Source: Cristatella mucedo
Lineage: Eukaryota > Bryozoa > Phylactolaemata > Cristatellidae
DNA: 64,000 nucleotides
Assembly: GCA_009760855.2 (NCBI GenBank)
Contig: WPIO01000272.1
Span: forward strand, 1-64,000
Direction of reading: 5' to 3'
Both the position numbers and the translations under genes were made by a program. The notes beneath the pieces were generated by a model. That model made no database searches, had not been told where the DNA came from, and saw only the letters and a program-made list of their open reading frames with translations. Below, piece by piece: positions 1,285 to 31,279 of the stretch (positions are counted from its first letter, which is position 1; every line of letters starts with the position of its first letter).

Positions 1285-3149
1285 GTGGTGGACGTTCTCC
1301 AAACAGCTTCCAAGATGAATGGTTCAATGCAACGCTCGCGTCGTTCTGCAACTATTGGGCAGTGCACGGCTGGTGCTGAAAGTGCAGGCCGTGATGCAAC
1401 TCGAGTAAATGAAGTAGTTTCGGTGAGTAGTGTAGGGGAATCGAGCGGCCCTCGGAAACGTGGACGACCGCTGGTACTGCCGGTTAGACCCCCGGGTGGT
1501 GTCGCCACGCCCACACCCAAAAAACGACGGGTAGTGAAAGAGAAAGAAGAGAACGAGGGGAATAATTTTATTTGTGGAAATCGTATTTTTGATGTTGCCG
1601 CACTGGCTACGGCGTTGATGGCTTACGCTCGGTGCCCGGCCTGTAATTGCCAAGTCTATTGTAGGGAAACGGACCTAGTGGGTCTTGCGAGTACGCTTGT
1701 ACTTATATGTAGGAGCCGTATTTGCAAAAATAGTCAGGTTAACATGCCTTTCTATCCGTCCCCTAGCAGGGAAGAGATGAAAGCCTTGCGAGCTGCAAAT
1801 GAAGAAGACAGTGAGAAGATGATGGTTGCCAAGCAAGGTCGTGTAAGGTCGACAGAGCCTGAGCTGCCCCTGAACATTCAGGCAATTTATGCTGCTAGGA
1901 GCGTTGGGCTAGGAAGAGCAGGGGTTGAAAGACTTTTTGGGTTTGTAGATTTACCTCCCCCTATCCCATCTAAACGCTGCACCGATTGTGTGAAAGCAAT
2001 TGCAGCTGCAGCTACGCAAGAGGCTGAACTGTCAATGGTGAGTGCTGTAGAAGAGGAGAAGGCTTTGGCTGATTCGTGTGATATCACCATCGCCGTCGAT
2101 GGCACGTGGAGGACCCGCGGCTTTAAATCGAAGCATGGGGTAGCAACAGGCACTTCCCTTAAAACAGGAAAGGCACTAGATGCAGAAGTGCTCAGCTTAT
2201 CATGCAAGGTTTGTGCAGCTGGTAAGCGAGGAGAGCATGACTTCGATAAAAATATCTGTGGCACAAGTGGTGCAATGGAAGGGGAAGGGGCAAAACGTAT
2301 GTTTGAACGCTCGCTGGAAACCCGTGGTGCACGGTATGTTAGGTATCTAAGGGATGGTGATTCCAAAGCTTGACAAAGTGTAACCAAAGCCAAACCGTAT
2401 GGAGACAGAAATAACAAAACTGGAGTGTATAGCGCATGTCGGTAAGAGGCTGGGCACTGCTTTGCGAAACCTTAAAAGAAAGAAAGCGAAATACCCCGAG
2501 GTTAAGGGCGGGTTTGCTGGACAGGGTGGGCTAACTGGCCTCATAGCTAGTAGGTTGCAGCAACACTTTGCCCATGCGGTGAGAGAGAATACGAATAATC
2601 TAGAGGGCTTGAAGAAAGATGTATGGAAATCTTTTTACCATACTTTCTCCTTTAATCAGGAGCCAGATCATAGGTTCTGTACGAAAGGTGCGTCGTCTGA
2701 ATGTCCCTATGAGAAAGCTGTAGCAAGTAATACGGTTTATGACCATGCAAAATCAAGACATTACGTACTAAAACCAGGGATAAAACAAGCCGCAAAGGAT
2801 CTGTATGAGGATAAACTACCCGATGACCTTCTAAAAAAATGTTTGCATGGTCACACCCAAAACCATAATGAGTCTCCATAACCTGATCTGGACAGAGGCT
2901 CGAAAGACTGAATATTCAGGCTTGTCCGCAGTTCGAGTGGCAGTGGCTGATGCCTGTCTACAGAAGAATGAAGGGATGTGTGGTCGTATCCCAGTTTGCA
3001 GAAGGTTAGGCATTCCTGTGGGCAGGTATATGAGGTTGTTTATGAAGGATTACGACAGGGAATCCAAGAGAGCTAGTTTAGCAAAGGCGAAATACAACCT
3101 CAAGAACAAAGGTGCACGTAGGAAGCCTGTACCAAGGCAAAAAAAATGA
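1285..3149 (+). pseudogene. Broken Mutator-superfamily transposase (DNA transposon)
   Basis: The first ORF (1285-2373, 362 codons) has an AT-hook-like RKRGRP at residues 57-62, a basic PKKRR at 78-82 likely to act as a nuclear signal, and a cysteine cluster C117-C120-C122-C126 that may bind zinc. A first catalytic Asp lies in IAVDGTWRTRGF (D272) and a second in RYLRDGDSK (357-359). This order matches the Mutator-like transposase family of animals, a cut-and-paste DDE enzyme. The reading is broken by a stop at 2371-2373 and a shift into the frame of 2399-2881, which carries ITKLECIAHVGKRLGTALR and the conserved KTQN-like block (TQNHNES) holding the third acidic residue. A second shift at about 2860 leads into 2847-3149, a basic C-terminus. 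It is therefore inactive. Terminal inverted repeats were not found, so element borders are unknown. The family call is from motif memory, not a search. Confidence 0.75.
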
Positions 3150-4341: not shown

Positions 4342-4391
4342 CCTTTAGCAACTACTGCCCAGTCTCCCTTCTACCATTCCTATTAAAGACA

Positions 4392-5153
4392 ATGGAACTG
4401 GTCGTGGCAGACCAGCTGACCTCATATATCGAAACCTCACACCTTGGTAGTAAGTCCCAGTCTGGCTTTAGAGCTAATCACTCCACCGATTCCGCATTGC
4501 TTAGGGTATACAACGACCTACTTAGGAATGCAGACATAGGTAGAGTGTCTCTGCTTGTTTTGCTTAATCTTTCGGCAGCTTTTGATACCATCGATCACAA
4601 AGTTCTTCTAGAGCGCCTCTCATCTCGCCTGGGCACCACTGGCACTGCTCTGCAGTGGTTCAGGTCCTATCTCAGTGGGAGACTCCAGAGTATTGACGTG
4701 AATGGACAAAGATCATTTGAAGTACCTCTGAAATATGGAGTACCTCAGGGCTCCGTGCTAGGTCCGGTTCTTTTCACGATTTATACTCTCCCTCTTGCTA
4801 AAGTGATTGCCAAGCACAATCTAGGCTTTCACTTCTATGCCGATGACACTCAGTTGTACCTTTGCTTTTATCCCCCCCAGCCTTCGAGCACCTCACATTC
4901 TCTAAACTCAATTGCTGCATGCATTGATGACATTCGCACATGGTTGGCAGCAAATTTTCTAAAACTAAACGATGATAAAACTAACTTACTAGTTATGGGC
5001 GAACCCAGTGTGATTCAGAAATTGAAAAAGCTGCCTCTCAAAATTGGCTCTGCCTGCTTATTTCGAGTGGAATCAACTCGGAACCTAGGTGTCATATTCC
5101 AAAGCGACCTCTCGCTAGACGACCATATCAGCTCCACAGTCAAATCTGCATAG
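4392..5153 (+). pseudogene. Family A reverse transcriptase fragment
   Basis: The longest surviving frame of the family A polymerase, 253 codons. It contains [36 protein letters not shown] (first catalytic Asp region), [17 protein letters not shown] and [14 protein letters not shown] (YADD catalytic pair), in the order and spacing of L2/CR1 reverse transcriptases. It copies element RNA at a nicked target. The frame ends at a TAG (5151-5153) where the next residues would continue into the conserved C-terminal region. Further in-frame stops follow near 5252 and 5385, so this copy is dead. The first Met is internal to the domain and is not a genuine start. Confidence 0.85.
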
Positions 5154-5560
5154 TTTCAGCTTCACAACATTGCTAAAATTCGGGCTTGTTTGGATAGGGA
5201 TACCTCGCCCAAGTTTGTCCATGCATTCGTGACATCCGGTCTTGACTTCTGAAACTCACTGCTTACTGGCCTACCAGCATGTGCGATCAGGCAATTGCAG
5301 CTGGTGCAAAACTCTGCAGCTAGGCTTGTCTGTCGTGAGCGACTCAGTTGCCACATTACTCCACTTCTCGCCGACCTGCACTAGCTACCAGTCAAGCAAC
5401 GGATTGACGTCAAGGTTTTGTCACTCACTTTTAGGTCCCTTCATTCTATGGCTCCAGCCTATCTCTCCGACATACTCCCCCATCAGGCCAAGCATCGTAC
5501 CACCTGCTTTTCGCTATCCAACAGTCTAGAAATACCTCGTACAAACCTTAAATCCTTTAA

Positions 5561-6887
5561 TGTATCTCCGTCAGTAACTCATCAAAGTCATAAAGACCAT
5601 GTGGGCGTTACGCAGGAGAGTTTTGTATAGCACACTCACAGCCTAAGCGGCTTTCGGTACGCATTCGATAGCCAACAGACTTCGTCTCACGCAACAAAGA
5701 GAAAGTGGGAAGCATAGCAGAGTTAGGAGAGCAGTTGAGGTAGAGAGTAGCATAGAAGTAGCAGCTCAGGACAGCTGAAAAAGATGTGCCATAGTCGGCA
5801 GTTGGAGAGTAGATGTCGTTGCGTAAGAATTGTGGAAGCGAGTTCCACAGTCTAGGACCTGCAGAGCTACAGCTTCTGTCGCCAACGGTCTTTAAGCAGA
5901 GAAAAGGGAAAGCTAATTTATTGTCCACATAGGACCTGAGGGCGCGAACAGGCTGAAACTTATGCAGCAGTTCAGCTAGGTACGAAGGAGCCAAGCCGTG
6001 GCTGGCCTTGTGGGTCAGTGTAAGAACTTTGCTCTGTATCCTTTGCTCAACCGGCAACCATTCTAGCTCTTTCAGCAAAGGTGACACATGGTCAAACCGC
6101 TGGGACTTGAAGACCAGCCTTGCAGCCATATTCATAGTCAGCTGTAGTGTCATAATAGCTTTCTTTGGTAGCACAGCCAAAAGGGAATTACAATAATCAA
6201 GCCGAGATAGAACTAAAGAGCTAGTTAAATTTTTTACAAGACACTGAGGGAGACAGCTTCTAATCTTGGATAGGGATCGGATGTGATGGCTAGCTGTAGA
6301 GGCAGTCTTCTGAATGAAGCTTTTGAAATTGAGCCAGCTGTCGAACACGACACCTAGATTACGAGCATGTGGTGAAGGTCGCACAATAGCATCACCTATT
6401 AGAACAGCAAAGCCTTTTAATCCAGCCACACGCTTAGGGTGTCCTATGAGAAGCAGTTCGGTTTTATTGTCATTTAATTTCAGGAAGTTTTCTGACATCC
6501 AGGATCGAATATCGGCAAGGCAAGCATTCAGTTTCTCAGTTGCTGCAGCAGATTCCGACGGTTCAAATGACAAATACAACTGAGTATCGTCAGCATAGAA
6601 GTGATATCCTATTCCATGGGCCTTAATCACTTTTCCCAGAGGTTGCGTATAAATGGAGAGCAACAAGGGACCAAGTACAGACCCTTGAGGGACTCCACAG
6701 GTGACCCTTCTCATGTCTGAGACCTGACCCCCACACGACACGGTTTGAATACGATGAGACAAGTGTGATTTAAACCAAGCCAGTGCTTCGTCTGCCAGAC
6801 CGATCGTTGTTCTCAATCGTTCAAGCAGAACTAATGCCAAATACAATGGATTTACTGAGTATCGTCAGCATAGAAGTGATATCCTAT
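5561..6887 (-). mobile_element. LINE family B copy inserted into family A; unusual 5' junction
   Basis: Minus-strand, 5'-truncated family B LINE. Its 3' end, at the left, begins with the family B terminal block (TGTATCTCCGTCAGTAACTC), though the TAATG-type tail seen elsewhere is almost absent. The upstream end stops within the RT domain at about 6840. Then 6846-6887 carries a second copy of an internal family B stretch (compare 6573-6613) in the same orientation, with an extra 7-8 bases inside it, before family A resumes. The filler fits template switching during target-primed reverse transcription. No clear target-site duplication was seen. Confidence 0.85.
5608..6846 (-). CDS. Family B reverse transcriptase C-terminal part (partial)
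   Basis: An uninterrupted 412-codon frame running to the family's natural stop (ends AIQNSPA). It contains [19 protein letters not shown] and [16 protein letters not shown], followed by the thumb/C-terminal region ([17 protein letters not shown]-like, then [11 protein letters not shown]) that L2/CR1 proteins share. The N-terminal RT motifs and the whole endonuclease are missing because of 5' truncation, so it cannot be active. The displayed Met is not an original start; its first residues come from the rearranged junction. Confidence 0.85.
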   Translation of the reverse strand: MYLALVLLERLRTTIGLADEALAWFKSHLSHRIQTVSCGGQVSDMRRVTCGVPQGSVLGPLLLSIYTQPLGKVIKAHGIGYHFYADDTQLYLSFEPSESAAATEKLNACLADIRSWMSENFLKLNDNKTELLLIGHPKRVAGLKGFAVLIGDAIVRPSPHARNLGVVFDSWLNFKSFIQKTASTASHHIRSLSKIRSCLPQCLVKNLTSSLVLSRLDYCNSLLAVLPKKAIMTLQLTMNMAARLVFKSQRFDHVSPLLKELEWLPVEQRIQSKVLTLTHKASHGLAPSYLAELLHKFQPVRALRSYVDNKLAFPFLCLKTVGDRSCSSAGPRLWNSLPQFLRNDIYSPTADYGTSFSAVLSCYFYATLYLNCSPNSAMLPTFSLLRETKSVGYRMRTESRLGCECAIQNSPA

Positions 6888-7258
6888 TAGAGACCGTGCA
6901 TTTAGTTCGTATGCTAGCAAAGCCTGGAACTCCCTCCCGACCTGCGTCAGAACATCTTCTGACCTGACCACATTTAAGAGTAACTTAAAAACACGTATTT
7001 AGGACAGCATTTAGGGGGTCCATGTGATTCGTCCCTGATGTGTGATGTGCTGACACTGAGCATGCTGCCACTAACCACATTTGCATGCTGACCCTGTGCA
7101 TGTCACCCTAACCATATTAATTTTGTTTGTTTTTAAAGCATGATTTTACTTACCATTCAATTGAATTTCATTTTGCAGCAAATGTAAAGCGCCTAGAAAG
7201 AGATTAAGTTCACCGAGGGCGCTTTATCAAGTGCATCATTATAATGATTATTATCATT

Positions 7259-7586
7259 ATCTAAAGCAACATAGAGACAGTGGGAAGCATAGCAGAGTCA
7301 GGAGAGCAGGTGAGGTAGTGAGTAGCATGGAGGTAGCAGCTCAGAACAGCTGAAAAGGATGAGCCATAGTCGGTAGCAGGAGAGTAGTAGTCGTTGAGTA
7401 AGAATTGTGGAAGCGAGTTCCACAGTCTAGGACATGCAGAGCTAAAGCTCCAGTCGGCAACGATCTTTAAGCAGAGGACTGGAACAGCAAATTGATTGTC
7501 CACACAGAACCTGAGGTTGTGAACAGGCTGAAACTGGTGCAGCAGTTGAGCTAGGTACGAAGTAGCCAAGCCGTGGCAGGCCTTGT
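7259..7586 (-). mobile_element. Family B LINE fragment, C-terminal region
   Basis: A minus-strand segment encoding [15 protein letters not shown], then [16 protein letters not shown] and the stretch ending MLPTVSMLL, all clearly family B but more diverged than the copies at 5.6 and 26 kb. It lacks the last 20 or so codons and the 3' untranslated region. It abuts the family A tail at 7258. The missing 3' part may be the plus-strand fragment at 8196-8310 (see findings). Confidence 0.75.
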
Positions 7587-8195
7587 CGAGAGGGGTCAGC
7601 CGGGATGGCCGGGTACCAGTAGTTGATGGTTTGCTAGGTGCCGAGCTGGCGGCAGTAATAGCAGCTGCTTGTGACGTCCGGAAGTCGATCTTGGGGTCTG
7701 GGAGGTGCTAGCTGGAGGTGGTGTCTTGGCGGGGCACGACGAGGACCTGCCAGCTTCGCCCTTAGAGCTCAGCCTCTGACGTACATTAATTCACTTAACT
7801 CGCTAGTTATGTGTGTCAGCCTGACAGCAGACGCCCGAGGCAATCGCTGTGGATGAGACTCTCGAGGCACAGGTAGAACAGGAGACGTTGGAGCAGGATT
7901 TGTGTGACGTGCTCACTGTCAGGGGGACGTGGGATCAGAGGTGTTATGGTTGAGGGGGTGCGAAAATAGAGGTAGTTTATCGTTAGCTGGGCACAGCTCT
8001 GACGGCTGTAGCATGAGCTAGCCATATCAGGAGGTCGGCCTTGTTTACTGGGAGGCGAAATGTGAAGGCAGCGTCATGGGGTGCAAGACGTCCACCGGTC
8101 AGCTACAGGCCGCGAGGGCTTAACCTCTGCTGGATATTATTACTCATGTCACCAGTGCCAGGTGCCAATACAATCAGTCAGTTTGTGCTTTCTAT
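7587..8195. other. GC-rich segment between two family B fragments
   Basis: About 610 bp with higher GC than its surroundings and no recognisable coding motif. It separates a minus-strand and a plus-strand piece of family B whose internal break points nearly coincide. It may be a later insertion or filler. Short ORFs on both strands look like chance frames. Confidence 0.4.
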
Positions 8196-8312
8196 GTACC
8201 GAATGGGTACCGAAAGCCGATTAGGCTTTGAGTGTGCTATACAAAACTCCCCGCCTAACACTCACATAGTCATCGTGGCCTTGTGGAGTTACAGACCGAG
8301 ATAAATTATATT
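8196..8312 (+). mobile_element. Family B LINE 3' end fragment
   Basis: Begins at the codons for [19 protein letters not shown], matching the last residues of family B ORF2 ([20 protein letters not shown]). It continues through the 3' untranslated block (about CTTGTGGAGTTACAGACCGA) into a degenerate AT tail. It is plus strand, opposite to the neighbouring 7259-7586 piece. Confidence 0.75.
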
Positions 8313-9580
8313 ACTTAACTCTTTAGTATCTGAAGTCCGACATCTCGTTGCTATCTGCACCAGAATACGAACGCCTCACACTGTCGCCGCTGCAGGCCGC
8401 CCCAGCCGTGGCTCGGTGTTCTTCCAAGGGTGACACTTCCGAGAGTCGAAGCGAACGGCTGCACGTGATGGCGTCTCTCGGGCGTGAGGGAGAGTTATTG
8501 TGAGCTTGGGAGGTGGCGAAGTCGCCCGCTTATCTTGCCGGCACATCATTCATTTGCGAGACTAGAGTCTCGTCTCGAAGGCGAGACTCCGACGTGCCTT
8601 TCGCCTGAGACAAAGGGCACGTTCTTTGTTCGCGAGACTGGAGCTGCCCTTCGCCTCTCGTCGGACGTTCGACTGCGAAAGACACGAGAGCCCTTTGGAA
8701 TGCGATCGCCAGATCGTGCAATGCCGAACTTTTCGTAGAGCTCTCCCGGCGGCCTAATTGGGTCAGCTTTCTAACCGGAACTCTCTCTACTGGCCGCAAC
8801 GACAGTGTCCATCAGCAGGCACATGCCTGTAGCTCAATCTCTGCTACGATCTTCGGCCGCAAGTGGAAGTGCTGCGACGATGGCTAAGGAGACGAGTGCT
8901 GCTGCAGGGTGCGTGCTCGTGAGCCGAGTCTGGCTGGCAGGGCGAGCTCACAGGGGTCAGCCGCTGCCTGGCGGGACGTGACCACTGCGTTCGTTCGAGG
9001 AAGATGGTCGCTTCGGCGAGCCGAAGGCTGGAGGAGTAAAGTGAAGTAGAAGCCAGGTTATTATATGGTCACATTGTGTGAGCACCAAGGCAGCATAGAC
9101 TTTGGATGTGCTAGAAAACGGAGCTGGGCAACACCAACTTTCTTATTATCTTAGATTTTTTTCGTATATTGTTATTAGATATACAGACACCTAATGTAAT
9201 ATGCTTAAAGTAAAATGCTTCTTTGCCCGACTGACTAGGCCTCAAATGGCTTGGCAGCGACCTGCAAACCGAAAGTTCTCACCCCTGGAAACTTCCTGCA
9301 CAGCCCTCATGTAGAGGACGATAAATAAATCATTTCACCTTAACGTCACTATAGCTGTGCGTCCATGAAGCTTTACTGATTCGTTTAGCTTCTCGCCGCA
9401 CCCCTGATGTTTTGGCACTACTAAGTACTGTAATGGTCACCAAACCTGGCCGTGCAGGGCAGTGACATATATTTTCCTGCTAACCACAAGGTCTCATTCA
9501 TCTGGTACGATCGCTTGACCCATACCCCTAGCTACACGACTTGAGTTGAGTGTGCACACTTACGACGGATAGATTTCCGT
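8313..9580. other. GC-rich, then AT-rich undetermined DNA
   Basis: 8313-9060 is markedly GC-rich and contains repeated GCGAGACT/GAGACT phrases (around 8560-8650), giving local self-complementarity. No protein family is recognisable in its ORFs (for example 8484-8738 plus, 8530-8799 minus). 9060-9580 returns to AT-rich DNA with nothing I can name. A promoter-like CpG-rich region is possible, but nothing shows it. Confidence 0.35.
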
Positions 9581-12560
9581 ATTTTTCCATGCCGTTGCAT
9601 TCGATTGCCGCGCATTACCCTTGCATGTACGATCAAAATTGGTTGATAGGATTGTGGTTGCTCTTTTAATACAGCCAACTGTTACGCAAAAAAACGCGAT
9701 CTTCTCCCACAAGCTTTGATTGTAATTGCAACAGACAATGATAGATTGCTTTATTGCCTCAAGCTATTGCCTCAAGCTTAATTGCCTTTGATTGCCACGG
9801 ATTGCCCAAGGTTAAAATTTAAAAAGGACAGCTTGTGCGCCCACAATGAGCGTTATGTAGTTGGATAATTACAAACTCTAACCAGCCAATTTCTAGCAAA
9901 TTTGAACCGGATTGCTGCAGAGACCGGGCCATTGCTGTCGATTGCCGTGCATCGCCCTCGATTGTGCCTTTTCGATTGTATAAAAGGATGCGGCTGCACT
10001 TATAATGCAGTGCAGCGCAATGCACAAGAAAAGTTGGAGTTTCTCTCAGCAACTGTTGGTACATGTATACCTATCCATTGTGAACTGGTGAATTTCCCCG
10101 GCAATTGCCGTCAATTGCCGTGGGTAACCGTCGATTGAACGCCCACTATGGGTAAACAATTTTTGCTCATACAATTACATGTTACGTGGAATGACAGTTT
10201 CAGTTTATTGCAGCCAATCTTGGCAATTTTCCACGTATTTAGCTATCGGCCCCTACAATTGCTGTTGATTGCCGTGCATCGCTAACAGTTAACAAACAAA
10301 GCATCTTGAAGTTTCCATGGTTTTACTTCGGACGCAGCGGATTGTTATATGGAATGACAATTGATGCTTCGGCACTGCCAATGTTTCTTCAATTCGCCGG
10401 GAATTGGGGTTTTTGGCCCAGGACATCGCTGTCGATTGCCGTTCGTTGCTCACGATTGTTAGTTCATGATTGGCTAAAAGGATTTGATTGCACTTTCAAC
10501 ACAGTCGGCTGTGACAGGTATGACATGTTTGATCTTGGCCCAGTCACTTTCCAGTGATTTGCCATGGACCATATTGGATTGCCGTATTTGCCCGGGCCAT
10601 TGCTGGTTGTTGCCATGCATTTCTCACGATCGAACGGTCAGAGCTGGTTGAAAGTATGCCTACACGTAGTGAGATGTTACGTGGAATGTGAATTGGAGCT
10701 CGGTGCAGCCGATTTCTTGTCGATTTGCCACGGATTTCGGTACTGGTCCTTGCCAGTGCTGTCAATTGCCGTGCATTGTAGAAAATTAACGAGCAAAATA
10801 GCTTGAAAGTCCTACGGTTTCACTTGTAGCACAAATAAATGTGAAATGCGACGATGATAGGCACTTCGTGCAGCCAATTTAGAGTCAACTTGCCACGGAT
10901 TGTAGTAAATTGCTGCTTCGAGCCGAGCCGTTGCCGTAGATTGCCGTGGATTGCCTTAGATTGTACGGGCTCAATTGATTAAAATGATATGATGGAATGT
11001 AATCAGTGTGCTTTTAAAAATGCATTCCAAATTGAAGCATTGCGAAACCAATTTCAGGGTACTTTCCATCAGATTGCTATAAATTGAGGTATTGGACCGG
11101 CCATTGCAGTCGATTGCAGTGCGTTGCTGTTGAATGATCGATGCGATTGCAGTGAAATTGTGGGAGTACGCAATAACCAAAAATTAGAGCAACGTGAAAT
11201 CACTGTTAGAGCTTAAAGTGTACGTATTCTGGTTGTTTTTTGGTGGGTTTCTGTACTCTGACATACTGGCCCGGGCAGTTGCAATGCATTGCTGCAGAAT
11301 GGCCAAAACAATTACAGTTAAGTTATGCAAGTACACAATAAACGAACAGTATAGCTGCGTGAAATCATAATTAGAGCTTTTAGTATACGCGTTCTGGTGG
11401 CTGTGTATCGGATTGCAGCGGATTTCGGTGGATTGTGGTGTGGGACCGGGTCGTTGCAGTCGATTGCAAGTCATTTCATGAGAACACGTATGCACAATGG
11501 AGCTACATTTTGTGGATGCACTTTGAACTGAGTCTAGTCCAGTATGCAATGTCAATTAGAGCATTGCGACGGCAATTTGTGGATGATTTGCTGTGGAATA
11601 GACTGGGTTGTGGTAGTTTTTCCAGGTCATTTCCGGCGATTACAGCCAATTGCCACTGTGCGAGGTTCTACAGTTTTTATGTTTGGTTATTGTGCACACA
11701 AAACGGTGCACTCTAACTTGCAATAAAAACTGGAGCTCGGCGCAATGCACTTCATATTATCTATGCGATGAGTTCTGCGGACGGAAGTGGATTGCTGTAT
11801 TGGCCTGTGCTACTGCAATCGATTGCAGTGCATTGCACGAAAAAGGCCGAGCCAATCTAAGTGAAAGATTTGTAATGCAGTTTTCGCAGAGTGTGCTGTA
11901 ATATTCAATCAAAAACGGAGCTTTTGGATCAGAGTTTCTTTCGTTCCATGGTAGAATGCTGTGGATTGTGGTTTTGGCCTGGGCCAACGCAATCTTATTT
12001 TAGTGAACTTTGTCAAAACTCGTGAGCAGAACCGTGCGAAATTTTCTGGGTAAATTGTGTGTGTAAAAAGAAAAAATAGAATAGTAGCTGATTTAACAGC
12101 TTTTTGTGTAGCCACAGAAGAACCTTTACGGCTATAACCACAGCTTGCAGTGGCGATAAATTATCGCCCACGACAGGATTCGAACCCACGACCTCGGGGC
12201 CGATGTCGTATAAAGCCATTGCCTTACCTGGTAAGCCATTACGATTAGCCTAGATTGATATTCCCGACTTTTTGGAGCTGTTCGCAGAAGATTCGGGGTG
12301 GATTTGACGGGAACTAGAATGGATTGCAGTGGATTGTGGTGGATTGCAGTGCAGGCGTCAGGCGTCAAAGCTCATTTGCATAAATGTGCGTGGGAGCAGC
12401 ACCATGCAATTTGGTGGACAGATACATTCAAACGTGTACTACTATAGCCGTGCACAATTTGAGCTCAGCAACGCTTAGGTCTGATCGTTGCTAGCCTAAA
12501 TAGAGTGGAATGCCGGGAATGAGGGGATTGTGGTAATTCGTCGAACCCAGCAAGGCCCAG
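9580..12560. repeat. Degenerate satellite array, about 170-bp period
   Basis: A core phrase near GATTGCCGTGCATTGC (variants with CAG for CCG) recurs at about 9603, 9790, 9940, 10113, 10267, 10434, 10607, 10764, 10939, 11112, 11278, 11462, 11638, 11821 and near 11990. The mean spacing is close to 171 bp. Each core follows a GGCCNGGGCCATTGC-like block. Between cores lie looser shared phrases, such as GTGGAATG and GGAGCTCGGTGCAGCC in some units and TAGAGCTT plus a GTACAC-like run in others. Units are clearly diverged from each other. An S1 SINE interrupts the array at 12086-12250; subtracting it puts the next core (about 12315) back in register. ORFs inside are by-products of the repeat. Confidence 0.8.
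12086..12250 (-). mobile_element. SINE S1 (tRNA-derived), inside the satellite array
   Basis: On the minus strand it begins with an A-box-like segment (TGGCTTACCAGG), has a B box GGGTTCGAATCC and a short tRNA-unrelated body (GGCGATAA ... AAAGGTTCTTCTGTGGCTAC), and ends GCTGTTAAATCAGCT. The A and B boxes are the internal RNA polymerase III promoter of tRNA-derived SINEs. Five more copies occur in this window. Confidence 0.8.
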
Positions 12561-13606
12561 GCAGCAAGCGACAGCCTGGCGCCCTTGCGGCTTTGCTCCC
12601 TCTTCTTGAGCCGACCGTGAGTCGCCGTTGCATGCAAGGCCATCGAAAGCGAAACCTATCGTGCGATAACGTGAGGCCGAATCTGCCTAACAGCTGATGC
12701 TGCGAGATAGGCAGGCAGCTACGATTTCGGACTCGGCATTGGCATTTGAGCTGATTCAGGCTCTAGGCAACTGCACCGTTGGGTTACGGTGCCGTGGCTG
12801 CTGCCGAACGCCAGTAACCATCCGTTGGTATGGAATAGACTAACGTGCATCTACATGATGAATATTAGATTTATAGATAGAAAGATCGACGGATGCACTT
12901 TGTGTGCTAACGTATGGGTACTTTCTCGTCGAAGCCGTATTCCAGCTACTGTTGGTCAACTACCTGCGTTTTTTTGCGCTCCACCTACAAGTCGCTAGCC
13001 GCATAGCTACGAGGTTGAGGCCTCCCAGCATCTATCTCATGGCGGCTAAAACTAGTTTCTCTACGAGCTCTGAGTGGGCGGTCTACTTCTGCCAGGACTT
13101 ATGTGACGCTCACCTCGTTTGTAACGATGCTAAGGGCACCCCTGAATCTCCCACTCACCGCAAAATTTATTTCGTGAGTTCCGCCGGCATTCTCCGTCAA
13201 GGTCCTGTCCGCAGGAAGTGGAGCGCTCAGTATCATCACAGCCATTTAAAACAAACGTGACTTGAGCGCGACTCGATTATTGACTAAGCAAGCCCGACCG
13301 GATACCCTGCTTCGTCGAGTCCTGCCAGCGAGCAGCGAAGAAGATGGAGGCATAGCAACCTCGCTCTCGGTCTCACGATTCGCAGAGCTACGAGGGCTCT
13401 AGAAAATTGCTCAGCTGACCTTGGCTCGAAAACCGCGCCGCAGAGTCATTCACAGTGGCTGACGCTGCAATGCCCGTAATTGTACTCGAGCTCGACAGCT
13501 GAGGCTGCACTACGAACAATGAGCTGACCGCTTCATTAGAACAAGAGCGCTAATAAAACAGACGTGATAAGCCGAGTCTTACGAGCAGTGCTATGTGTGA
13601 TTGCGT
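12561..13606. other. GC-richer undetermined DNA
   Basis: Mixed composition with ORFs at 12789-12998 and 12904-13260 (118 codons). The latter has a cysteine-containing stretch (VYFCQDLCDAHLVCND) but matches no family I recognise and could be a chance frame in GC-rich DNA. No splice or promoter evidence. Confidence 0.3.
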
Positions 13607-13640
13607 AATAAATGTAATGTAATGTATCTCCGTCATTATA
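13607..13640 (-). mobile_element. Possible minimal family B LINE 3' end
   Basis: The plus strand reads TGTAATGTAATGTATCTCCG followed by unrelated DNA. This is the family B tail repeat plus the terminal block of its 3' untranslated region, with almost nothing else. It could be an extremely 5'-truncated insertion of about 20-30 bases, or chance similarity. Confidence 0.4.
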
Positions 13641-14060
13641 GTCGGACTTATGAACTGATTACTATAACAAAATATGTGGCTGACTGCAGTCGCACTCTTG
13701 GAGCAGCAGTCGGCCGGTCGTGGAGTCCTAGCTCTGATTGAAATCTGTTGTAAACTCGTTAGCGAGTCGGCAGGAAGCCACTCTGTCATCTCAGCTGTAT
13801 ATAAAAGGCTGTCACAGCGCTGCTTCCACTGCAGGGTTATTATTAGCATTGCGTGCGGAATATCAACCACTGTGTCACTATCGTTGGCGCATTTCGAGCT
13901 TCCAGGGTTTGCACCTTGCACACGTTGCGCCACTGTCATAACTGGTGAGGATCGCTTGGTCATAATGGCACCGACTGCGTTTCTGGCTGCCGATTTCCGA
14001 CCCAGCCTAATTCCAACAGCGTGCCCTGTCAGCGTTGACGGCCGAGTTCCCACATGAGAC
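13641..14060. other. Undetermined DNA with overlapping ORFs
   Basis: Overlapping frames on both strands (13674-14057 plus, 127 codons; 13550-14062 minus, 170 codons) reflect GC-rich sequence with few stops. None shows a domain I recognise, and neither is favoured over the other. Confidence 0.3.
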
Positions 14061-14061
14061 A

Positions 14062-14330
<269 letters not shown>

Positions 14331-15640: not shown

Positions 15641-18194
<2,554 letters not shown>

Positions 18195-19936: not shown

Positions 19937-20068
19937 GTTCGGTTCAGTGGTTAAGTAGCTCGCCCCGACCAAGGTCTGGCTGAGGTCGTTAGCTCGAGCC
20001 CCGAGGCATATATGAAGCGCCTGAATAGAGATTGAGTTCTCTTGGAGCGCTATGTAAATGAATTATAT
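19937..20068 (+). mobile_element. SINE S2 (tRNA-derived, LINE A-like tail)
   Basis: The best S2 copy. It has an A-box-like CAGTGGTTAAGTAGC, a middle GCTCGCCCCGACCAAGGTCT and a B-box-like TAGCTCGAGCCCC. The tail GCGCCTGAATAGAGATTGAG, then TTCTCTTGGAGCGCTATGTA and an AT-rich end, closely parallels the last 50 bases of LINE family A. Confidence 0.7.
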
Positions 20069-20832
20069 TTTGTTTACATTATATAACGGATACAACTGAC
20101 AGTTCTCATGCTGGTCCACAAGGCCTGCCATGGCTTTGAACCTATAGTTGCTTAGGGTATGAGCAGGCTATAGAAAGCTCTACCGAGTAACATCCAATTA
20201 GGACCTGTGGCTCTGTGGAGTTGCCGACTGATATAAATTAAGTGGCATTAAAACACAGCTGCTGCAGAAATTACAAGATAAATCATGTAGGGGTGTTAGG
20301 TGTTGCAAATCTTATTGTCACCCAGTAAGAGAAAATCCGCAGACATCCAAGTCCTGGTGTCAGGAGTAATACAGTCGTGTAGAGCAGTAGTAGCTAGAGA
20401 GACTGAAAGGCCAATTTATCTAGAAGTGCACATACAGATTTTTATCTGATGGATAATAACTCAGGTCCATATTTCATTTTACAATTGTAGAGGGGCAAGT
20501 CTTTAATCAAAAAGGAGGATACCAAGACCTGATTACTAAGATTCACTATACTTTAAAGATAAATGGAATAATTTGGCCGTTGATGTCTATACAACGACAG
20601 AGGTCATATCTATAGAATTGCAGTACAAAGCTGTAGCAGTGCAGATCTAGTGACATTTCCAAACAAGGAGTCTCTGAGGGTGATTGGTGATATCACTGCT
20701 AAGAGAGTGACCTGAACATGCGAAATGACTTTAGCTACGTCAGTATTGCCTACGCCATTTTTATACTGTAGCAGCTGTGCTGATTCCGGGAAAATGTCAG
20801 CTCCAATTATAGAACTATTTGGTTTAAATATA
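20069..20832. other. AT-rich DNA, nothing recognised
   Basis: No supported coding frame and no identifiable repeat. Confidence 0.4.
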
Positions 20833-20985
20833 ACTGAATATATTTCATTTGTATAACACCCCAAGTGAAATTAATCTCTATTAAGGTGCTTCCCATATGC
20901 CTCGGGGCTCGAGGCCATGGACCTCAGCCAGATCTTGGGCGGGACGAAGTTCTGAGCCGGTTTTTAGCAGGGAGGTCACTATTTC
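20833..20985 (-). mobile_element. SINE S2 copy
   Basis: Minus-strand copy: tail complement (TGTATAACACCCCAAGTGAA) on the left, then the B-box complement around GGGGCTCGAGG, then the complement of the CGCCCAAGATCTGGCTGAGG region. Confidence 0.65.
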
Positions 20986-21296
20986 ACTGGCTTTGAGAGG
21001 ACGCATAGTAAAGAGACATTGCGGCTTTTGCCTAAAGTTTTGCTTCACAGTTTATATTTACTAATAATGAAGAATATATTGAAATGTTGATGTGCAATAT
21101 TAGTCAAGTTATTATTGCAAAATGGCTCAGAACCAACTATGTCACGGCGTTTGGTTGTTTTTCTAGAAGCCTAAGCCATATCGTAGGCTGAAGGCTTAAG
21201 CTCTTGACGTCGAGCCAAGTAATGAAATGTGCTTAGAAACATGGAACCGTGGTGTTATGTTATTCTCTGAACAATGTAAAATATCTTTTCTATGAT
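20986..21296. other. AT-rich spacer, nothing recognised
   Basis: Spacer between an S2 SINE and a family A LINE. No gene or repeat recognised. Confidence 0.4.
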
Positions 21297-22261
21297 AGTT
21301 ATAATAATAATAATGCACTTGATAAAGTGCCCTCAGAGAATGTGATTTCTTTCTGGGAACTTTACATTTGCTGCAAAGGGAAAGTGATTGAATGGTGAGC
21401 ATTATCATGCTTGATAAACACCCTTAATAAAATTGCTAGGGGTGACATGAACAGGGTCAGCATGTAAGTGTAGTTAGTGGCAGCATGCACAGTCTCTGCA
21501 TGCATAAGCACATGAAGGACGAATCGCAGCAACCCACTAACTGCTGTCCTAAATAGGTAGGTTTTTAAGTTCTATTTAATTGTGGCAAAGTCATGAGATG
21601 TTTTGACGCAAGTCGGGAGTGAGTTCCCGGATTTGGAAGCATGCGAACTAAATGCAAATTATCCAAAGGAGTTTAGGTTTGCACGAGATATAGTTACACC
21701 GTCGGATTCCGAAAAGCCGGTGGTACGATGCTTGGCCCTGGTGGGGGAGCAGATCTGAGAGATTGGCTGGAGCCACAGAATGAAGTGACCTAAAAGTGAG
21801 CGACAAAACCCTGATGTCGATCCGTTGCTTGACTGGTAACCATTACATGTAGGCGAGAAACGGTGTGATGTGGTAACTGCGACGCTCAAGGCAGACAAGC
21901 CTAGCTGCAGAATTGTGCACCTGCTGTAAGCACCCCTGATCACACATGCCGGTAGGCCAGCAAGCAGTGAGTCACAGAAGTCAAGACGGGATGTCACAAA
22001 TGCACGGAACAACTTTGACGCGGTATCCTTATCTAAAGAAGCCCAAATTTTAGCAACGGTATGTATCAGAAAGCAGGCAGACTTGATTGCGGAGCTTATG
22101 TGGTCATCTAATGAGAGACTCACTTTGGAACATGACACCTAGATTTCGAGTTCATTCAACAGGAGACATGCCGACTGAGTCAATTTTGAGCGTCAGCCTT
22201 TCCAATTTCTGAATCACACCGAGTTTTCCCGTAACTAATAAGTTAGTTTTATCACTGTTTA
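21297..22261 (-). mobile_element. Family A LINE, 5'-truncated
   Basis: Minus strand, with the AAT tail at 21297-21315, the full 3' untranslated region, and RT C-terminal frames. The frame at 21659-22138 includes VSLSLDDHISSAIKSACF and SRLDFCDSLLAGLPACVI. Frames are interrupted. Similarity stops at about 22261, in codons just after the [12 protein letters not shown] block. Confidence 0.8.
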
Positions 22262-24137
22262 GTTATTGTTTAGTTTATTCTACCCTATGGCCAGCCTGAG
22301 GGGGCAGGGTCAGTCGTTACCTCCTACTGTGACGAGGCGACCTAGGCCGTCCCTAAACCTAAGCCACCGACAGCCATCGGCGACTAATGTATGCCTGAAT
22401 TACAATAAATAAAAATACTTTTCATCTGAAAAGCAGCCTAAAAGCCCAACATACCCAGCTGGGCCAGAGCCTAACGCACCAGTCGTAAAAGGCAAGAAAT
22501 CCCTGAGCCGAACCACGTCGCATGATAGAGCAACTGCCAAGTTCATGCAGAATAAACTGTGATTTTGCCTTACAATGTTTCGTGAATATCCGATCAACAC
22601 GCGCCTACATGGGAATTGTAAGCGCCTTGCAGGTCTTCTTCTGTTAGATAAAACACTTGGCCGCTGGCTAACACGTCTACTGGATACTTATAACTTTACG
22701 CGGTACTCGAACAGACTGCCCGCCCAATGGGCTTTAATTTGTACGTAACGACGGCTGGCTTCTTTATTGTGGCCCTGACCTGCCATCGTTGGCATACCTC
22801 AGGTTATTGGTGCAGCACATACCGTAACGGACATCATCCGTAATAATCAATGAAAGAAGCCCTCGTATTGTATCGTTTAGCTGTCTGCAATGTCTTCCTC
22901 CGTCGAGATAGCTATTATTTTGTGATAGAAAAGAAATTCTGATAATGAGGCCACACAGCTTGTGTTGCATTTTGTTTCGGAATTCTCCAATCATTTTCGA
23001 AGAATCTTAGCAAGAGCATCTTGCCAGCCGTTTTTGCTTGTTACTATATAGGTAAAGTTTTTTATGTCAATTATAGCTTCCCATATTGGCAGGATTATGG
23101 CATGTGCTGATTGTCACAACAGACCTTATTCAAACACGGGTACGCGAAGATGCATGCCTACTCGCTCGAATAAAATCATTGCAAAAAACCCTCACTCGTT
23201 AAAGAAAGTAAGTTTTGTAAGAATATTAAAAGAAATTAGCTGTTGAAATGTTGGAAATGCCTATATACACGAGCATCAATTTTTTAAGCTCAACGTAAAA
23301 TTGTAAATGCGTATTAGGAACCGGTTGGAAAATTTATGTAAGAGTAAGCAGACAAACTAATGCTGCCTAAGAAGTACTACGGAATAATAAACCGTTTACA
23401 GAGCTAATGAGGAGGCAAATTATGGTATTAAATGAAGAGCGTAATTATTTGAACTTCTTTCAATAACCTTAGGAAAACAAAAGCATCTAATTCACCAGAT
23501 AGGTGTAACTAGCCGATAACCTTCGGTTAATCATTCTACCCCAAGTTCTTCATAACAGAGAAGGAACCATCTACCAGCAAAAGTATCTACGAAAAAGAGT
23601 CTACCCGTTAAAACTCGCCGGTGTATTCAATTTTAATATGAAACACTTCGCTTAGAAGTGCATAGTATTCCAAAACTGAGAGGCAATTCCTCACAGATCA
23701 GTAAGCGTGACTAAAACTGACACTATGTGACAAAGTCTGCCTTTTAGCGGTTACCTGGCTTTTTATCCGCACAGCGTTTGAAACAAAAGCCTTGTAGGAC
23801 TGTTTCATAATCAATAGGGTATTCAATATCAAAAGTCCAACCACAAGATTTCGAGTTGGAGCTTCTTTTAAAAATCATAAATAATCCCTGCTATCTTTGA
23901 TATGACACTTATCGTGGCCAATTCATTGTAGCAGCAATCAATATATCAAAATAGCACAAACCAAGTTCAACCTCAGTGAATGCCGCCTATATAAAAAAGT
24001 CTGCCCTATATATATAAATGTTTCCTCAATATAAACAAGTTGCAAACCCTACCCCAAATAACGGAAATCCTTGCACTGCCACCGCTGTGTGCCTATATTG
24101 GCAACTGGTAGACAAAAGGTAGAGGTGGTGTAATATA
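22262..24137. other. Mostly AT-rich DNA with weak exon candidates
   Basis: 22823-23005 (minus) is an open 183-base stretch with a GTATGT donor and a weak acceptor. 23077-23207 (plus) is open with a GTAAGT donor and an ATTATAG acceptor. The two lie on opposite strands 70 bases apart, so at most one is likely to belong to any given gene. Both are short enough to be chance. The rest shows nothing I recognise. Confidence 0.25.
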
Positions 24138-24545: not shown

Positions 24546-25160
24546 ATATATTGTGTTTTCAGTTTTCTCTTGTTTCTACCGAGAATTTTGCTTGCTAAAG
24601 ATGGTAACCTTGTTAGAGATCCTAGATAATTTTTTTGCAGGCACCCTGAAGTTAATAATGTAGCGCCGACATGTCCTATGTTATAGATCAAAGCATCTTC
24701 TGGTACTAAAGTCCACCGCGTATTAGACTAATGAGGCAAACAATAATTACAGACGTGAAGGACTCAGATAATCCATAACGGCTACCTAAGTTACAGTCAT
24801 TCATCTTTTTGGAATATACTTGTAGATTTAAACGCCTGCATTGTATTTTAACAAGAAATGCTTCTCTATCTGAAGTTTTACTAATCTGCTAAAAAATAAA
24901 GACTTTCCAGTATCGTTTGATATTTTGAGTTGGCTTTTTTCATGTATTGACGTTTCACCGATTTCGGCAGTTTTTATTTTTAGTAAACACCGAAAAGGCC
25001 ACCCTATTTGGCATTTAACGAAAATAATCAATCGTAATTATGTAAATTATGTAATTATGTTCATTAAACATTCTAGGATAAAGACTGCTATTTTATTAAT
25101 TGTTGCTCACTGAGGACTTACTGAATTTGACGATTGTCTTACGGTGATAACAGTAACAAC
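24546..25160. other. AT-rich DNA, nothing recognised
   Basis: Short opposing frames (24828-25031 minus, 24925-25113 plus) have no recognised motif and no convincing splice sites. Confidence 0.4.
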
Positions 25161-25326
25161 GAGCTGATTTAACAGCTTCTTGTGTTTAGCGATAGAAGAG
25201 CCTTAATGGCTATCAACACCGCTTGCAGCGGCAATAAGGAATCGCCCACCGCATGATAATAATCCACGACCTTAGTCACGATGTCGAGAAAAGCAACAGC
25301 CTTACCTAGTGTGCCATCACCGCTCA
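25161..25326 (-). mobile_element. SINE S1 copy
   Basis: Starts GAGCTGATTTAACAGCTTCT and ends near the A-box complement CCTTACCTAGTGTGCCATCA. The B box is decayed (the plus strand has AATAATCCACGACC where other copies have GGATTCGAACCCACGACC), so this copy is older. Confidence 0.7.
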
Positions 25327-25689
25327 ACAGCCTAGGCATAGAATACTAGAACTTTGAACAGGCAATAGACAACATAGCTTAACCACAAAATATCCCCGTT
25401 CTGAATACTTTTAGTCGACAAAATGTAAAGAATAATTGAAATTTAGTTTTTTAAGTTTTAGCAGATTTACTTAAAACATTGAGATAAAGCCCGAATGAAT
25501 AGCATAGGTTCCTTTCAAAACTATGCAAACTATACTGTGCGCAAAATATGTTAAACATCTCACTGTCCACATGCAAAGACATTTTCAGTGCCCTCCGATA
25601 AAACTAAAGACTTCAATATGCTGGCCGGAAACGTATTTCAGAAACATAATTTAACTACTAGGCCAGCAGTATGGAAATGTATTTCATCA
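25327..25689. other. AT-rich spacer between two S1 SINEs
   Basis: No gene or other repeat recognised. Confidence 0.4.
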
Positions 25690-25836
25690 TTCAACAGCAT
25701 GTTTTGTACAGCGATAGAAGAGCATTTACGGCTATGACCTTCGCTTTCAGCAGCGACGTAGAATCGCCCACGATAGGATAGCAGCCTACGGCTATGGGAC
25801 CAAGGTCGTTAAAAGCTACAGAATTACCCAACGTGA
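25690..25836 (-). mobile_element. SINE S1 copy, degraded
   Basis: Contains TTTTGTACAGCGATAGAAGA and GAATCGCCCACGATAGGATA of the S1 body. The tRNA-like head is much altered. Confidence 0.6.
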
Positions 25837-26067: not shown

Positions 26068-26295
26068 GTACTTAAGCCAAATACTCTTGGGGTCTTATAA
26101 TAATATTGTTTAATAATGTTTAGATTACATTGTATATAAGACAATATTACAATAATATTATTTGAAAATATTATGGAATGTGATCTCACTTCAAGAGGTA
26201 CCTAGATGGTTTAATCAGGCAGTATATTTGAGCGTAAGTGTAATGTAATGTATCTCCGTCAGTAACTCCACAAAGTCATAAAGACCATGTGGGCG

Positions 26296-27861
26296 TTACG
26301 CAGGAGAGTTTTGTATAGCACACTCACAGCCTAAGCGGCTTTCGGTACGCATTCGATAGCCAACAGACTTCGTCTCACGCAACAAAGAGAAAGTGGGAAG
26401 CATAGCAGAGTTAGGAGAGCAGTTGAGGTAGTGAGTAGCATAGAAGTAGCAGTTCAGGACCGCTAAAAAAGATGTGCCATAGTCGGCAGTTGGAAAGTAG
26501 ATGTCGTTGCCTAAGAATTGTGGAAGCGAGTTCCACAGTCTAGGACCTGCTGAGCTAAAGCTTCTGTGGCCAACTGTCTTTAAGCAGAGGAATGGGACAG
26601 CTAATTTATTGTCCACACAGGACCTGAGGGCGCGAACAGGCTGAAACTGATGCAGCAGTTCAGCTAGGTACGAAGGAGCCAAGCCGTGGCTGGTCTTGTG
26701 GGTCAGTGTAAGAACTTTGCTCTGTATCCTTTGCTCAACCGGCAACCATTCTAGCTCTTTCAGCAAAGGTGACACTTGCTCAAACCACTGGGACTTAAAG
26801 ACCTGCCTTGCAGCCATGTTCATAGTCTGCTGTAGTGGCATAATAGCTTTCTTTGGTAGCCCAGCCAAAAGGGAATTACAATAATCAAGCCGAGACAGAA
26901 CTAAAGAGCTAGTTAAATTTTTTACAAGCCACTGTAAGAGATAGCTCCTAATCTTAGATAGGGATCGGATGTGATGGCTAGCAGTAGAGGCAGTCTTCTG
27001 AATGAAGCTTTTGAAATTGAGGCAGCTGTCGAACACGACACCTAGATTACGAGCACGTGGTGAAGGTCGCACAATAGCATCACCTATTAGAAGAGCAAAG
27101 CCTTTTAATCCAGCCACAAGCTTAGGGTGTCCTATGAGAAGCAGTTCGGTTTTATCGTCATTTAATTTCAGGAAGTTTTCCGACATCCAGGATCGAATAT
27201 CCGCCAGGTAAGCATTCAGTTTCTCAGTTGCTGCAGCTGATTCCGACGGTTCAAATGACAAATACAACTGAGTATCGTCAGCATAGAAGTGATATCCTAT
27301 TCCATAGGCCTTAATCGCTTTTCCCAGAGGTTGCGTATAAATAGAGAACAGCAAGGGACCAAGTACAGACCCATGAGGGACTCCACAGGTGACCCTTCTC
27401 ATTTCTGAGACCTGACCCCCACACGACACGGATTGAACACGATCAGACAAGTATGATTTAAACCACGCCAGTGCTTCGTCTGCCAGACCGATCGTTGTTC
27501 TCAATCGTTCAAGCAGAACTTCGTGATCAATGGTGTCGAAGGCAGCAGACAGATCTAGAAGAGCTAAGGCAGTGAAATTCCCGTCGTCGTTGCCACATAG
27601 AATGTCATTGTTAACACGGAGGAGAGCAGTTTCAGTAGAGTGCTGCCTCTTGAAACCTGATTGAAATGTTTCTGACATTCCATTATTTTCAATATGTCCA
27701 ACTAGCTGCTTAGCAACAATTTTTTCAAGAATCTTTGATAGGAACGGGAGAAGGGAAACTGGACGATAGTTTGCTAGCACCTCTGTGTCTAATCCAGGCT
27801 TTTTAAGAATAGGTCTAACGATTGCCGATTTAAAGGACTTGGGGACGACCCCTTTTCCCAA
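26296..27861 (-). CDS. Family B reverse transcriptase, long open part
   Basis: 521 codons open to the natural stop. Visible blocks: [20 protein letters not shown] (30-49), [16 protein letters not shown] (67-82), [20 protein letters not shown] with catalytic D103, [17 protein letters not shown] (159-175, with PHG where relatives have PQG), and [13 protein letters not shown] with the YADD pair at 193-196. The fingers/palm and thumb are followed by a C-terminal region ending [20 protein letters not shown]. The Met is internal: one premature stop (near 27866) separates this frame from the in-frame 27871-28359 segment upstream. Close copies at 5.6 kb and 57 kb keep PQG. Confidence 0.9.
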
Positions 27862-27870
27862 AGAAGCATT

Positions 27871-28665
27871 TCAAATCTTGGTTATGGCAGGGCTAAGTTG
27901 GTCTGCAAGTGAAGACCACAGAGATGAAGGTATAGGGTCTTCAGGAGACGAGCTCTTTTTGCTAGACCTTATTAAGGCAGCCACATCACTGGCAGAAACT
28001 TCGGAGAACCTCTTAAGAAAGGTCACAGGTTGAGGAACGGCGATTGCTTTGGTCGGAGGGGGCTTAATGGAGGCACGAATGTGCACAATTTTTTCAGTAA
28101 AGAAGGCTGAAAACTTTTCGGCTGAGCCCTTAATATCTGGGGAGTCAGACCTGACAGCATTGGCCAATAATTGGTTTACTGTCTTATAAATCTGTTTAGT
28201 GTCCGACTGGCAGGAATTCAGTTTTCTAATGAAAAAAGAAGCCCTGGCTTTTTTAAGCTTTCGGGTGTAAACTCGAAGGAAGTCGTTAAAATTGACTAGG
28301 TCTGCCTCAGACCCCGATTTCTTGAAACGACGTTCCAGCCTGTGCTTAACACAGCGCATCTTAAGGAGTTTTTTTGTAAATTGAAAGCAATCTCAACGAC
28401 TTTGAACACGGATAGAATGAACGGGAGCATGCTTGTCAAAAGCACTCCTGAGTGTCATGTTCATAGCATCAATGAGGGTATCGAGGCTGCCGGTCGAGTC
28501 TGAATGCAGATCAAGAAGGCCTGCATCACAAACAGATTTCAAAAACTTGTCCAAGTCAATGCTTTGTAAGTTACGTCGTTTGGCAAATTTGACATTACCC
28601 TGCAGGTGGAGGGAGCAGGAACAATAAACGAGACCGAGCAATGATCTGAGAGGGTCAGTGGGCAC
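27871..28665 (-). pseudogene. Family B linker between endonuclease and RT
   Basis: Two frames in the same phase (28393-28665 and 27871-28359), separated by a premature stop near 28391 and a short readable gap. They encode a basic linker (MRCVKHRLERRFKKSGSEAD), a region with FSAFFTEKIVHIRASI, and SSSPEDPIPSSLWSSLADQL, the segment that precedes the RT in L2/CR1 elements. The copy at 57.6-58.15 kb has Phe where this one has the stop near 27866 (ITKIFNASLGKG), showing the stop is a private mutation. Confidence 0.8.
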
Positions 28666-29135
28666 ACCACAAAGTCAGTGGGGATGACATCCTTAGTGAT
28701 CACGAGATCTAGAATGTGGCCACCGACGTGGGTGCTATGATTAACGTGTTGGGCCAAACCAAGATTCTCCAGACAGTCAAGAAATGAGCGGACCTGGCTG
28801 TTGCTAGGGTTGTCAACGTGAATATTGAAGTCTCCTAAAATCAGTAGCGGCCTGTCACTCACAAATATTTTAGTGAGGAACTCTGAAAACTCCTCTATAA
28901 ACAAGTTTAGACAGCCAGAAGGAGGCCGGTATATCACAACGGTGAGAGGCATTGTCTTTGATGAAGACCTGATAGCAACCGATTCAAACGATGACCCATG
29001 CGAGAAACTGCACATTTTATAGCCAAACGATTCGAGAACAACAATTGCAACCCCGCCACCAACCTTGTCAGAACGCATGGACTGATAGACTGAGAACCCG
29101 GGTGGAGTGGTCTCGGAAATACAGCTACTGGACAA
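28539..29135 (-). pseudogene. Family B APE-type endonuclease, main part
   Basis: 198 codons with DKVGGGVAIVVLESFGYKMC, VVIYRPPSG, LLILGDFNIHVDN (acidic GDFN motif), STHVGGHILDLVITKD and LTLSDHCSVSFIV (SDH motif). These are the ordered hallmarks of apurinic-like LINE endonucleases, which cut target DNA. The frame departs from its upstream partner near 29120 and from its downstream partner near 28600 by frame shifts. Confidence 0.9.
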
Positions 29136-30945: not shown

Positions 30946-30946
30946 T

Positions 30947-31115: not shown

Positions 31116-31172
31116 TTAATAGGAAACGTGATTGAATTTAGTATAAATTTTGTTAGATATAAAATATCTGCA

Positions 31173-31245: not shown

Positions 31246-31279
31246 AGCCATCTCTCCCACCATGCTTGCAGCTACTGCT

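What the first reader, a model, noticed from the sequence alone, without database searches (positions are those of the whole stretch)
9580..12560. Diverged satellite array of about 170 bp units built around a GATTGC-rich core
Fifteen or more core phrases recur with a mean spacing near 171 bp over about 2.4 kb, and the register continues on the far side of an inserted SINE. The unit length is close to a nucleosome repeat, as in many centromeric satellites, but the units are strongly diverged. Within a unit the GATTGC word itself repeats every 10-14 bases, so there are two levels of repetition. The array may be a fossil satellite or a boundary region.
Basis: partly seen in the sequence, partly recalled or inferred. 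Interest (0 to 1): 0.75.

Follow-up and report, generated by a model that had tools for sequence, protein, structure and literature searches.

The report
Old, decayed 171-bp tandem repeat array
A stretch of repeat-rich eukaryotic DNA holds fourteen head-to-tail copies of a roughly 171-letter unit that have drifted to about half identity yet keep a short core with a 10-letter rhythm, so it looks like the remnant of an ancient satellite-like array.

Summary
14 head-to-tail units (9588-11979; mean 170.9 bp, sd 6.3) share about 50% identity, against 36% for shuffles. A profile built without a unit still finds that unit, wholly or in part, in 14 of 14 cases (E 5.3e-06 or better). Weak remnants continue to about 12513 beyond a SINE-like insert. 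All six frames are full of stops.

A 30-bp core of 10-bp-spaced ATTGC words is conserved more than uniform decay gives (difference 0.173; largest of 120 simulations 0.107). A/T dinucleotides in the core follow a 10.29-bp rhythm, and 7 of 8 mid-sized indels are 9-11 nt (only 4 of 7 by another method). Array-wide phase coherence is weakly supported (4 of 400 jittered, 39 of 400 reordered controls reach it).

Best reading: a fossil nucleosome-length, satellite-like array with a constrained or locally homogenised core. The kind is known. Centromeric location, genome-wide copies and species are untested (17 genome-search runs unanswered). No CENP-B-like enrichment; no transposon ends found.

The parts
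9588..11979 (+). Array of 14 head-to-tail units, mean 170.9 bp (unit starts, set by eye: 9588, 9757, 9925, 10090, 10252, 10424, 10596, 10753, 10925, 11098, 11272, 11449, 11624, 11806)
9925..10924 (+). Possible ancient trimer duplication: units 3-5 (9925-10423) against units 6-8 (10424-10924), the highest-scoring of all non-overlapping trimer pairs
   Evidence: score 312; its identity (0.66) does not stand out among the 15 listed pairs (0.63-0.67); order-permutation tests of an offset-3 effect are weak (p 0.10 and 0.22)
9588..11097 (+). 5' block of units (1-9): exact TTGCxGT words have C at 9 sites, T at 2, A at none; mean length of the first seven units is 166 bp
11098..12350 (+). 3' block (units 10-14 and remnants): exact TTGCxGT words outside the SINE-like insert have A at 7 sites, T at 3, C at none; mean length of the last seven units (8-14) is 175 bp
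11980..12080 (+). Decayed unit 15, first part, up to the insert
   Evidence: register and residual core words read by eye; no HMM match is listed here
12081..12244 (-). SINE-like insert, 86% identical to a copy at 30942-31109; strand and tRNA-like B-box motif are recalled and read by eye, while ARAGORN and Rfam report nothing here
12245..12517 (+). Weak remnants of units 15-16, with GATTGC cores at 12322 and 12342

Best explanation
This is a remnant of a nucleosome-length, satellite-like tandem array. An ancestral unit of about 171-175 bp, itself containing a tract of 10-bp sub-repeats (consensus near GATTGCCGTG), was amplified head to tail, by single units (for example units 10-11) and possibly by blocks of three (units 3-5 and 6-8). 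It then stopped homogenising and decayed to about 50% identity, took a SINE-like insert, and now lies among LINEs and other repeats. SHOWN: tandem origin, decay, relatedness of neighbours, a core conserved above uniform decay, a 10.3-bp A/T rhythm in the core, and, on MAFFT alignments, mid-sized indels mostly of about 10 nt. INFERRED: while active, the 10-bp-phased core set the rotational position of a nucleosome, or bound a protein along one face of the helix, once per unit; and either constraint on that core, or 10-bp slippage and conversion within it, kept it similar while the rest drifted.
For: Period and unit homology, core and non-core. Identity falls with distance along the array (Mantel r -0.51, p 2e-4). 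Core: best 30-column stretch 0.790, reached by 0 of 2000 column permutations (maximum 0.775); difference to the rest 0.173, against at most 0.107 in 120 uniform-decay simulations realigned the same way. A/T dinucleotide power at 10-10.5 bp is 3.77, against 1.58 (sd 0.32) in 94 background windows of 2.4 kb; z 8.7 at 10.25 bp against 30 shuffles. 7 of 8 indels of 5-16 nt are 9-11 nt, against simulation means of 20-26%; 0 of 120 simulations reach 70%. Unit distance d 0.83, against 14% difference between the SINE-like copies.
Against: No second array of this family was seen in the window and none could be sought in the genome, so 'satellite-like' rests on one locus of about 2.9 kb. The rhythm lies almost wholly in the core: at 10.29 bp, power is 32.7 in the core and 3.0 in the rest, so it does not imply nucleosome positioning over the whole unit. 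Core similarity may come from sub-repeat slippage or conversion rather than selection. The indel pattern depends on method: leave-one-out HMM alignments give 4 of 7 indels of 5 nt or more at 9-10 nt, the other three being 5 nt. Several 10-nt gaps are shared by units 4, 5 and 7; by my reading there are about five independent events, two of them in the sub-repeat tract. The simulations assume independent units and a chosen indel-length mix.
Confidence: 0.72

Rival explanations
1. The array is the central repeat tract of an old mobile element (Helentron/HINE type, or subterminal repeats of a large DNA transposon) that carried it here.
For: The oyster HINE elements carry satellite-like arrays of 140-180 bp units, mostly of few units, the longest with 29 (PMC7492417, passages). 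The array sits among transposons, including a Mutator-like transposase about 7 kb away.
Against: DNA fold of 12500-12640 is no better than shuffles (z 0.33, 123 of 200 fold at least as well); the hairpin scan lists none in 8500-14000; inverted repeats in 8000-14100 are 13 short pairs, the longest 26 nt at 73%. TRF lists no microsatellite beside the 5' edge, only a 2.1-copy 14-mer at 9192-9220. With one copy the ends cannot be defined, so these negatives are weak.
Confidence: 0.15
2. A functional regulatory or chromatin array under selection for helical register: ATTGC sites kept on one face of the DNA over many units, with indels tolerated mainly in whole turns.
For: A narrow 10.29-bp A/T peak over the 2.4-kb array (power 26.4; background maximum 13.0 in 141 windows scanned on a coarser grid). 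9-11 nt indels on MAFFT alignments. Core conservation. Core spacings somewhat concentrated (a fraction 0.0102 of 5000 random draws reach it).
Against: 4 of 400 junction-jittered and 39 of 400 reordered arrays reach the same power. Phase is roughly steady only from about 9926 to 11635. The spacing concentration is not peaked at 10.29 bp (0.69 at 10.10-10.15 and 0.67 at 9.6, against 0.61 at 10.3), its null was slightly wider than the data, unit 2 was left out, and many spacings are inherited. HMM alignments give 4 of 7. 10-nt slippage of sub-repeats would give much the same pattern. The non-core adds little.
Confidence: 0.08
3. A remnant of a coding or RNA-gene tandem array.
For: Minus-strand ORF of 123 aa at 11184-11555.
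Against: 23-37 stops in each of six frames over 9588-11979; unit length varies and is not kept in multiples of three; no Rfam family at gathering score and one chance-level hit at E 0.5.
Confidence: 0.02

Closest known systems
Nucleosome-length centromeric or pericentromeric satellites, for example primate alpha satellite (171-bp monomers; abstract of PMC4585704 in the listing)
   Same: Unit length, head-to-tail order, a hint of three-unit blocks, uneven conservation along the unit.
   Different: Units only about 50% alike and only about 16 of them; no CENP-B-like enrichment; place on the chromosome unknown. Sequence similarity to alpha satellite was not tested.
Meloidogyne satellites with conserved Box 1 (PMC3694981, passages)
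   Same: Highly divergent monomers (two of the satellites share 32% identity) keep a short conserved box; higher-order repeats occur.
   Different: That box resembles the CENP-B box; here the box is a 10-bp sub-repeat tract of ATTGC words without CENP-B likeness.
Helentron/HINE central repeats of Crassostrea gigas (PMC7492417, passages)
   Same: Short dispersed arrays of 140-180 bp units outside large satellite blocks.
   Different: No palindrome, microsatellite or inverted subterminal repeat found at the array ends here.
C. elegans periodic An/Tn clusters (recalled; only a search listing was seen)
   Same: About 10-bp A/T rhythm over long stretches.
   Different: Here the rhythm sits in a tandemly repeated core and in a different word (ATTGC).

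Membership tests
Satellite-like tandem DNA (head-to-tail, non-coding) | Head-to-tail repeats of a common unit, above chance | tested here: met
Satellite-like tandem DNA (head-to-tail, non-coding) | Non-coding | tested here: met
   stops in all six frames; no Rfam family at gathering score
Satellite-like tandem DNA (head-to-tail, non-coding) | Many copies or long arrays in the genome | not testable with these tools
   The genome search unanswered in 17 tries; no other array in the 64-kb window
Active, homogenised satellite | Units kept alike by concerted evolution | tested here: not met
   about 50% identity; only relatedness of neighbours remains (Mantel). Hence filed as a fossil, not as an active satellite
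Centromeric satellite with CENP-B box | CENP-B box core in a subset of units | tested here: not met
   93 window matches with up to 2 mismatches, 92.5 expected; 3 two-mismatch matches inside 9588-11979, none closer
Centromeric satellite with CENP-B box | Location at the centromere, CENP-A chromatin | not testable with these tools
   no map or ChIP data
Higher-order repeat satellite | Multi-unit block repeated as a whole | tested here: inconclusive
   units 3-5 and 6-8 are the highest-scoring trimer pair and the top four (overlapping) pairs all have offset 3, but permutation p is 0.10 and 0.22
Helentron/HINE element | Palindrome near the 3' end, microsatellite and subterminal repeats beside the array | tested here: not met
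   a single copy only, so weak
Helentron/HINE element | Same flanks at several loci | not testable with these tools

The most novel reading that the evidence does not exclude
An ancient tandem array in which selection keeps not the sequence but the helical register: a 10-bp-phased ATTGC core stays on one face of the DNA over roughly ten units, and length changes are tolerated mainly in whole turns, so the array would be a long-lived platform for rotationally set nucleosomes or a one-face DNA-binding protein.
Probability: 0.08. Interest if true: 0.65.

Novelty: new member of a known kind. Interest (0 to 1): 0.36.

Why it matters
Satellites are usually seen young and uniform. A readable remnant at about 50% identity that still shows a conserved core, indels of about one helical turn and possible block duplications would record what in a satellite unit resists decay. 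With further copies or orthologues it could separate selection on chromatin phasing from mere slippage of short sub-repeats.

Tried and rejected
Coding remnant: rejected on stops and unit lengths. RNA gene array: no Rfam family, no tRNA. Foldback or long inverted repeats: only short pairs within 8000-14100; on the minus strand the array model has only chance-level matches, best E 1. Hairpin after the array at about 12550-12586: seen by eye, not above shuffles, not in the hairpin list. A 10-bp period running through the whole unit: the non-core profile has no lag-10 signal (z 0.7), and non-core A/T power is 2.06 against 1.61 background. Three-unit higher-order structure as a rule: not significant. 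Strong claim of array-wide helical coherence: weakened by the jitter and reorder controls. Core pattern in public collections: 0 in viral contigs; 21 loci with one match each in genome contigs (prokaryotes), taken as chance. LINE reverse transcriptase in viral contigs to place the organism: no relative. Tick identity was only a guess used in two paper searches and is not claimed.

Full report
Setting. The window is 43% GC. Of 37 ORFs of at least 100 aa, 10 were scanned against Pfam: six carry reverse transcriptase or endonuclease domains of LINE type, two carry parts of a Mutator-like transposase, two have no match. Self-BLAST shows several related LINE copies and SINE-like copies. It is eukaryotic and repeat-rich. 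The species was not established.

Observation. Autocorrelation and word spacing of 9580-12110 show lags 10, 165 and 174 and multiples near 320-329, 350-359 and 490-499. In two control stretches (20000-22500, 30000-32500) the highest lag has z 2.7 and 3.1, and neither 165 nor 174 is among the 15 lags listed, though 170 is listed at z 1.9 in the first. Fourteen units, cut by eye at the core word, are 157-182 bp long, mean 170.9. Their mean pairwise identity (0.497) is far above shuffled units (0.359) and random chunks (0.360), also without the first 48 bases of each unit (0.470 against 0.362). Profiles built from 13 units find the fourteenth in 14 of 14 cases; the weakest are unit 13 (E 5.3e-06, model 69-174 only) and unit 2 (E 2.4e-06). 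The best outside match is E 0.071. No second array was found in the window.

Beyond the insert. A SINE-like element (12081-12244; sibling at 30942-31109, 86% identical) interrupts unit 15. 'SINE-like' rests on several copies in the window and a B-box-like motif that I recall; ARAGORN and Rfam report nothing. Weak matches at 12273-12329 and 12342-12513 (E 0.22 and 0.37 in the whole window; E 0.0013 for the first and 0.0089 for 12434-12513 in a 797-base search without the insert) and core words at 12319-12347 continue the register. This continuation is likely rather than proven.

Age and growth. Units differ at half their sites (Jukes-Cantor d 0.83), while the insert differs 14% from its sibling. 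If rates are similar, homogenisation ceased well before the insertion. Identity falls with distance (Mantel r -0.51, p 2e-4). Units 10 and 11 are the closest pair (65%; tree support 0.98). Units 3-5 and 6-8 are the highest-scoring trimer pair, and the top four trimer pairs, which overlap each other, all have offset 3; their identities do not stand out, and the offset-3 permutation tests are not significant (p 0.10 for all 14 units, 0.22 for units 1-9). In exact TTGCxGT words the variable base is C at 9 sites up to 10941 and A at 7 sites from 11104 on; 2 and 3 words with T, and one with A inside the insert, were left out of this contrast, which was noticed after looking. Mean identity is 0.53 within units 1-9, 0.50 within units 10-14 and 0.47 between.

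Core. The most conserved 30 columns lie over CCGGGCCATTGC-GTCGATTGC-GTGCATT. With units re-cut 85 bases away so that the core is not at the edge, the stretch scores 0.790; 0 of 2000 permutations reached this (maximum 0.775). In 120 simulations of uniform star-like decay with random indels, realigned in the same way, the difference between best stretch and rest was at most 0.107; it is 0.173 here. The simulations assume independent units, which the real ones are not.

Rhythm. A/T dinucleotides have a 10.25-bp period in 120-bp windows, z 8.7 against 30 shuffles, and 3.77 against 1.58 (sd 0.32, maximum 2.49) in 94 background windows. Over the whole array the peak is narrow at 10.29 bp (power 26.4; background maximum 13.0 in 141 windows, scanned on a coarser grid). 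Controls temper this: 4 of 400 junction-jittered and 39 of 400 reordered arrays reach it, the signal comes from the core (32.7) and hardly from the rest (3.0), and local phase is roughly steady only from about 9926 to 11635. A test of core spacings, with core positions set by hand and unit 2 left out, is concentrated beyond the null (fraction 0.0102 of 5000) but not peaked at 10.29 bp.

Indels. Of the indels of 5-16 nt in the re-cut alignment, 7 of 8 are 9-11 nt, against 20-26% on average in simulations. Six MAFFT runs of other settings and phases give between 7 of 9 and 8 of 9, with 9 of 12 as the lowest share. Leave-one-out HMM alignments are less clear: 4 of 7. Several gaps are shared by related units or lie in the sub-repeat tract, so independent events are about five by my reading.

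Interpretation. The simplest account is a nucleosome-length tandem repeat, amplified locally, then left to decay, with a core of 10-bp sub-repeats that either slips and converts or is constrained. A chromatin role (rotational nucleosome setting or one-face protein binding) is inference. Centromere function is not supported by any test here: no CENP-B-like enrichment (93 found, 92.5 expected), and location could not be tested.

Known relatives. Uneven conservation with a short box in divergent satellite monomers is in print for nematodes (PMC3694981, passages). Short arrays of 140-180 bp units inside Helentron-type elements are in print for oyster (PMC7492417, passages). A review of satellite DNA (PMC8122249, passages) describes nucleosomal and 5-10 bp unit lengths. 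Six paper searches were made; none searched for this unit's sequence, so no claim is made that it is absent from print.

Limits. The window's own genome could not be searched. All conclusions rest on one locus.

Noticed in passing
window 58180-58570 and 56201-56466: A 122-bp tandem repeat of about 3.2 copies; a related piece lies on the other side of a LINE copy at 56480-58182, as if the LINE had landed in the array.
   Followed up: partly
window 1285-2881: Mutator-like transposase (PF20700) matched in two neighbouring plus-strand ORFs, 1285-2373 and 2399-2881.
   Followed up: no
window 4343-7586, 26239-29611, 56480-58182 and fragments: A family of LINE copies, the closest pieces 95-96% identical, with RVT_1 and endonuclease domains.
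   Followed up: no
window 8545-8660: A stretch rich in CGAGAC/GTCTCG words in both orientations (read by eye).
   Followed up: no
window 9588-11979: CpG is less depleted in the array (observed/expected 0.93) than in the window as a whole (0.71).
   Followed up: no
window 16531-16659: A perfect AT dinucleotide run of 64.5 copies.
   Followed up: no
window 25159-25317, 25689-25779, 30942-31109, 47658-47762, 63419-63578: Further copies or fragments of the SINE-like element that interrupts the array.
   Followed up: no
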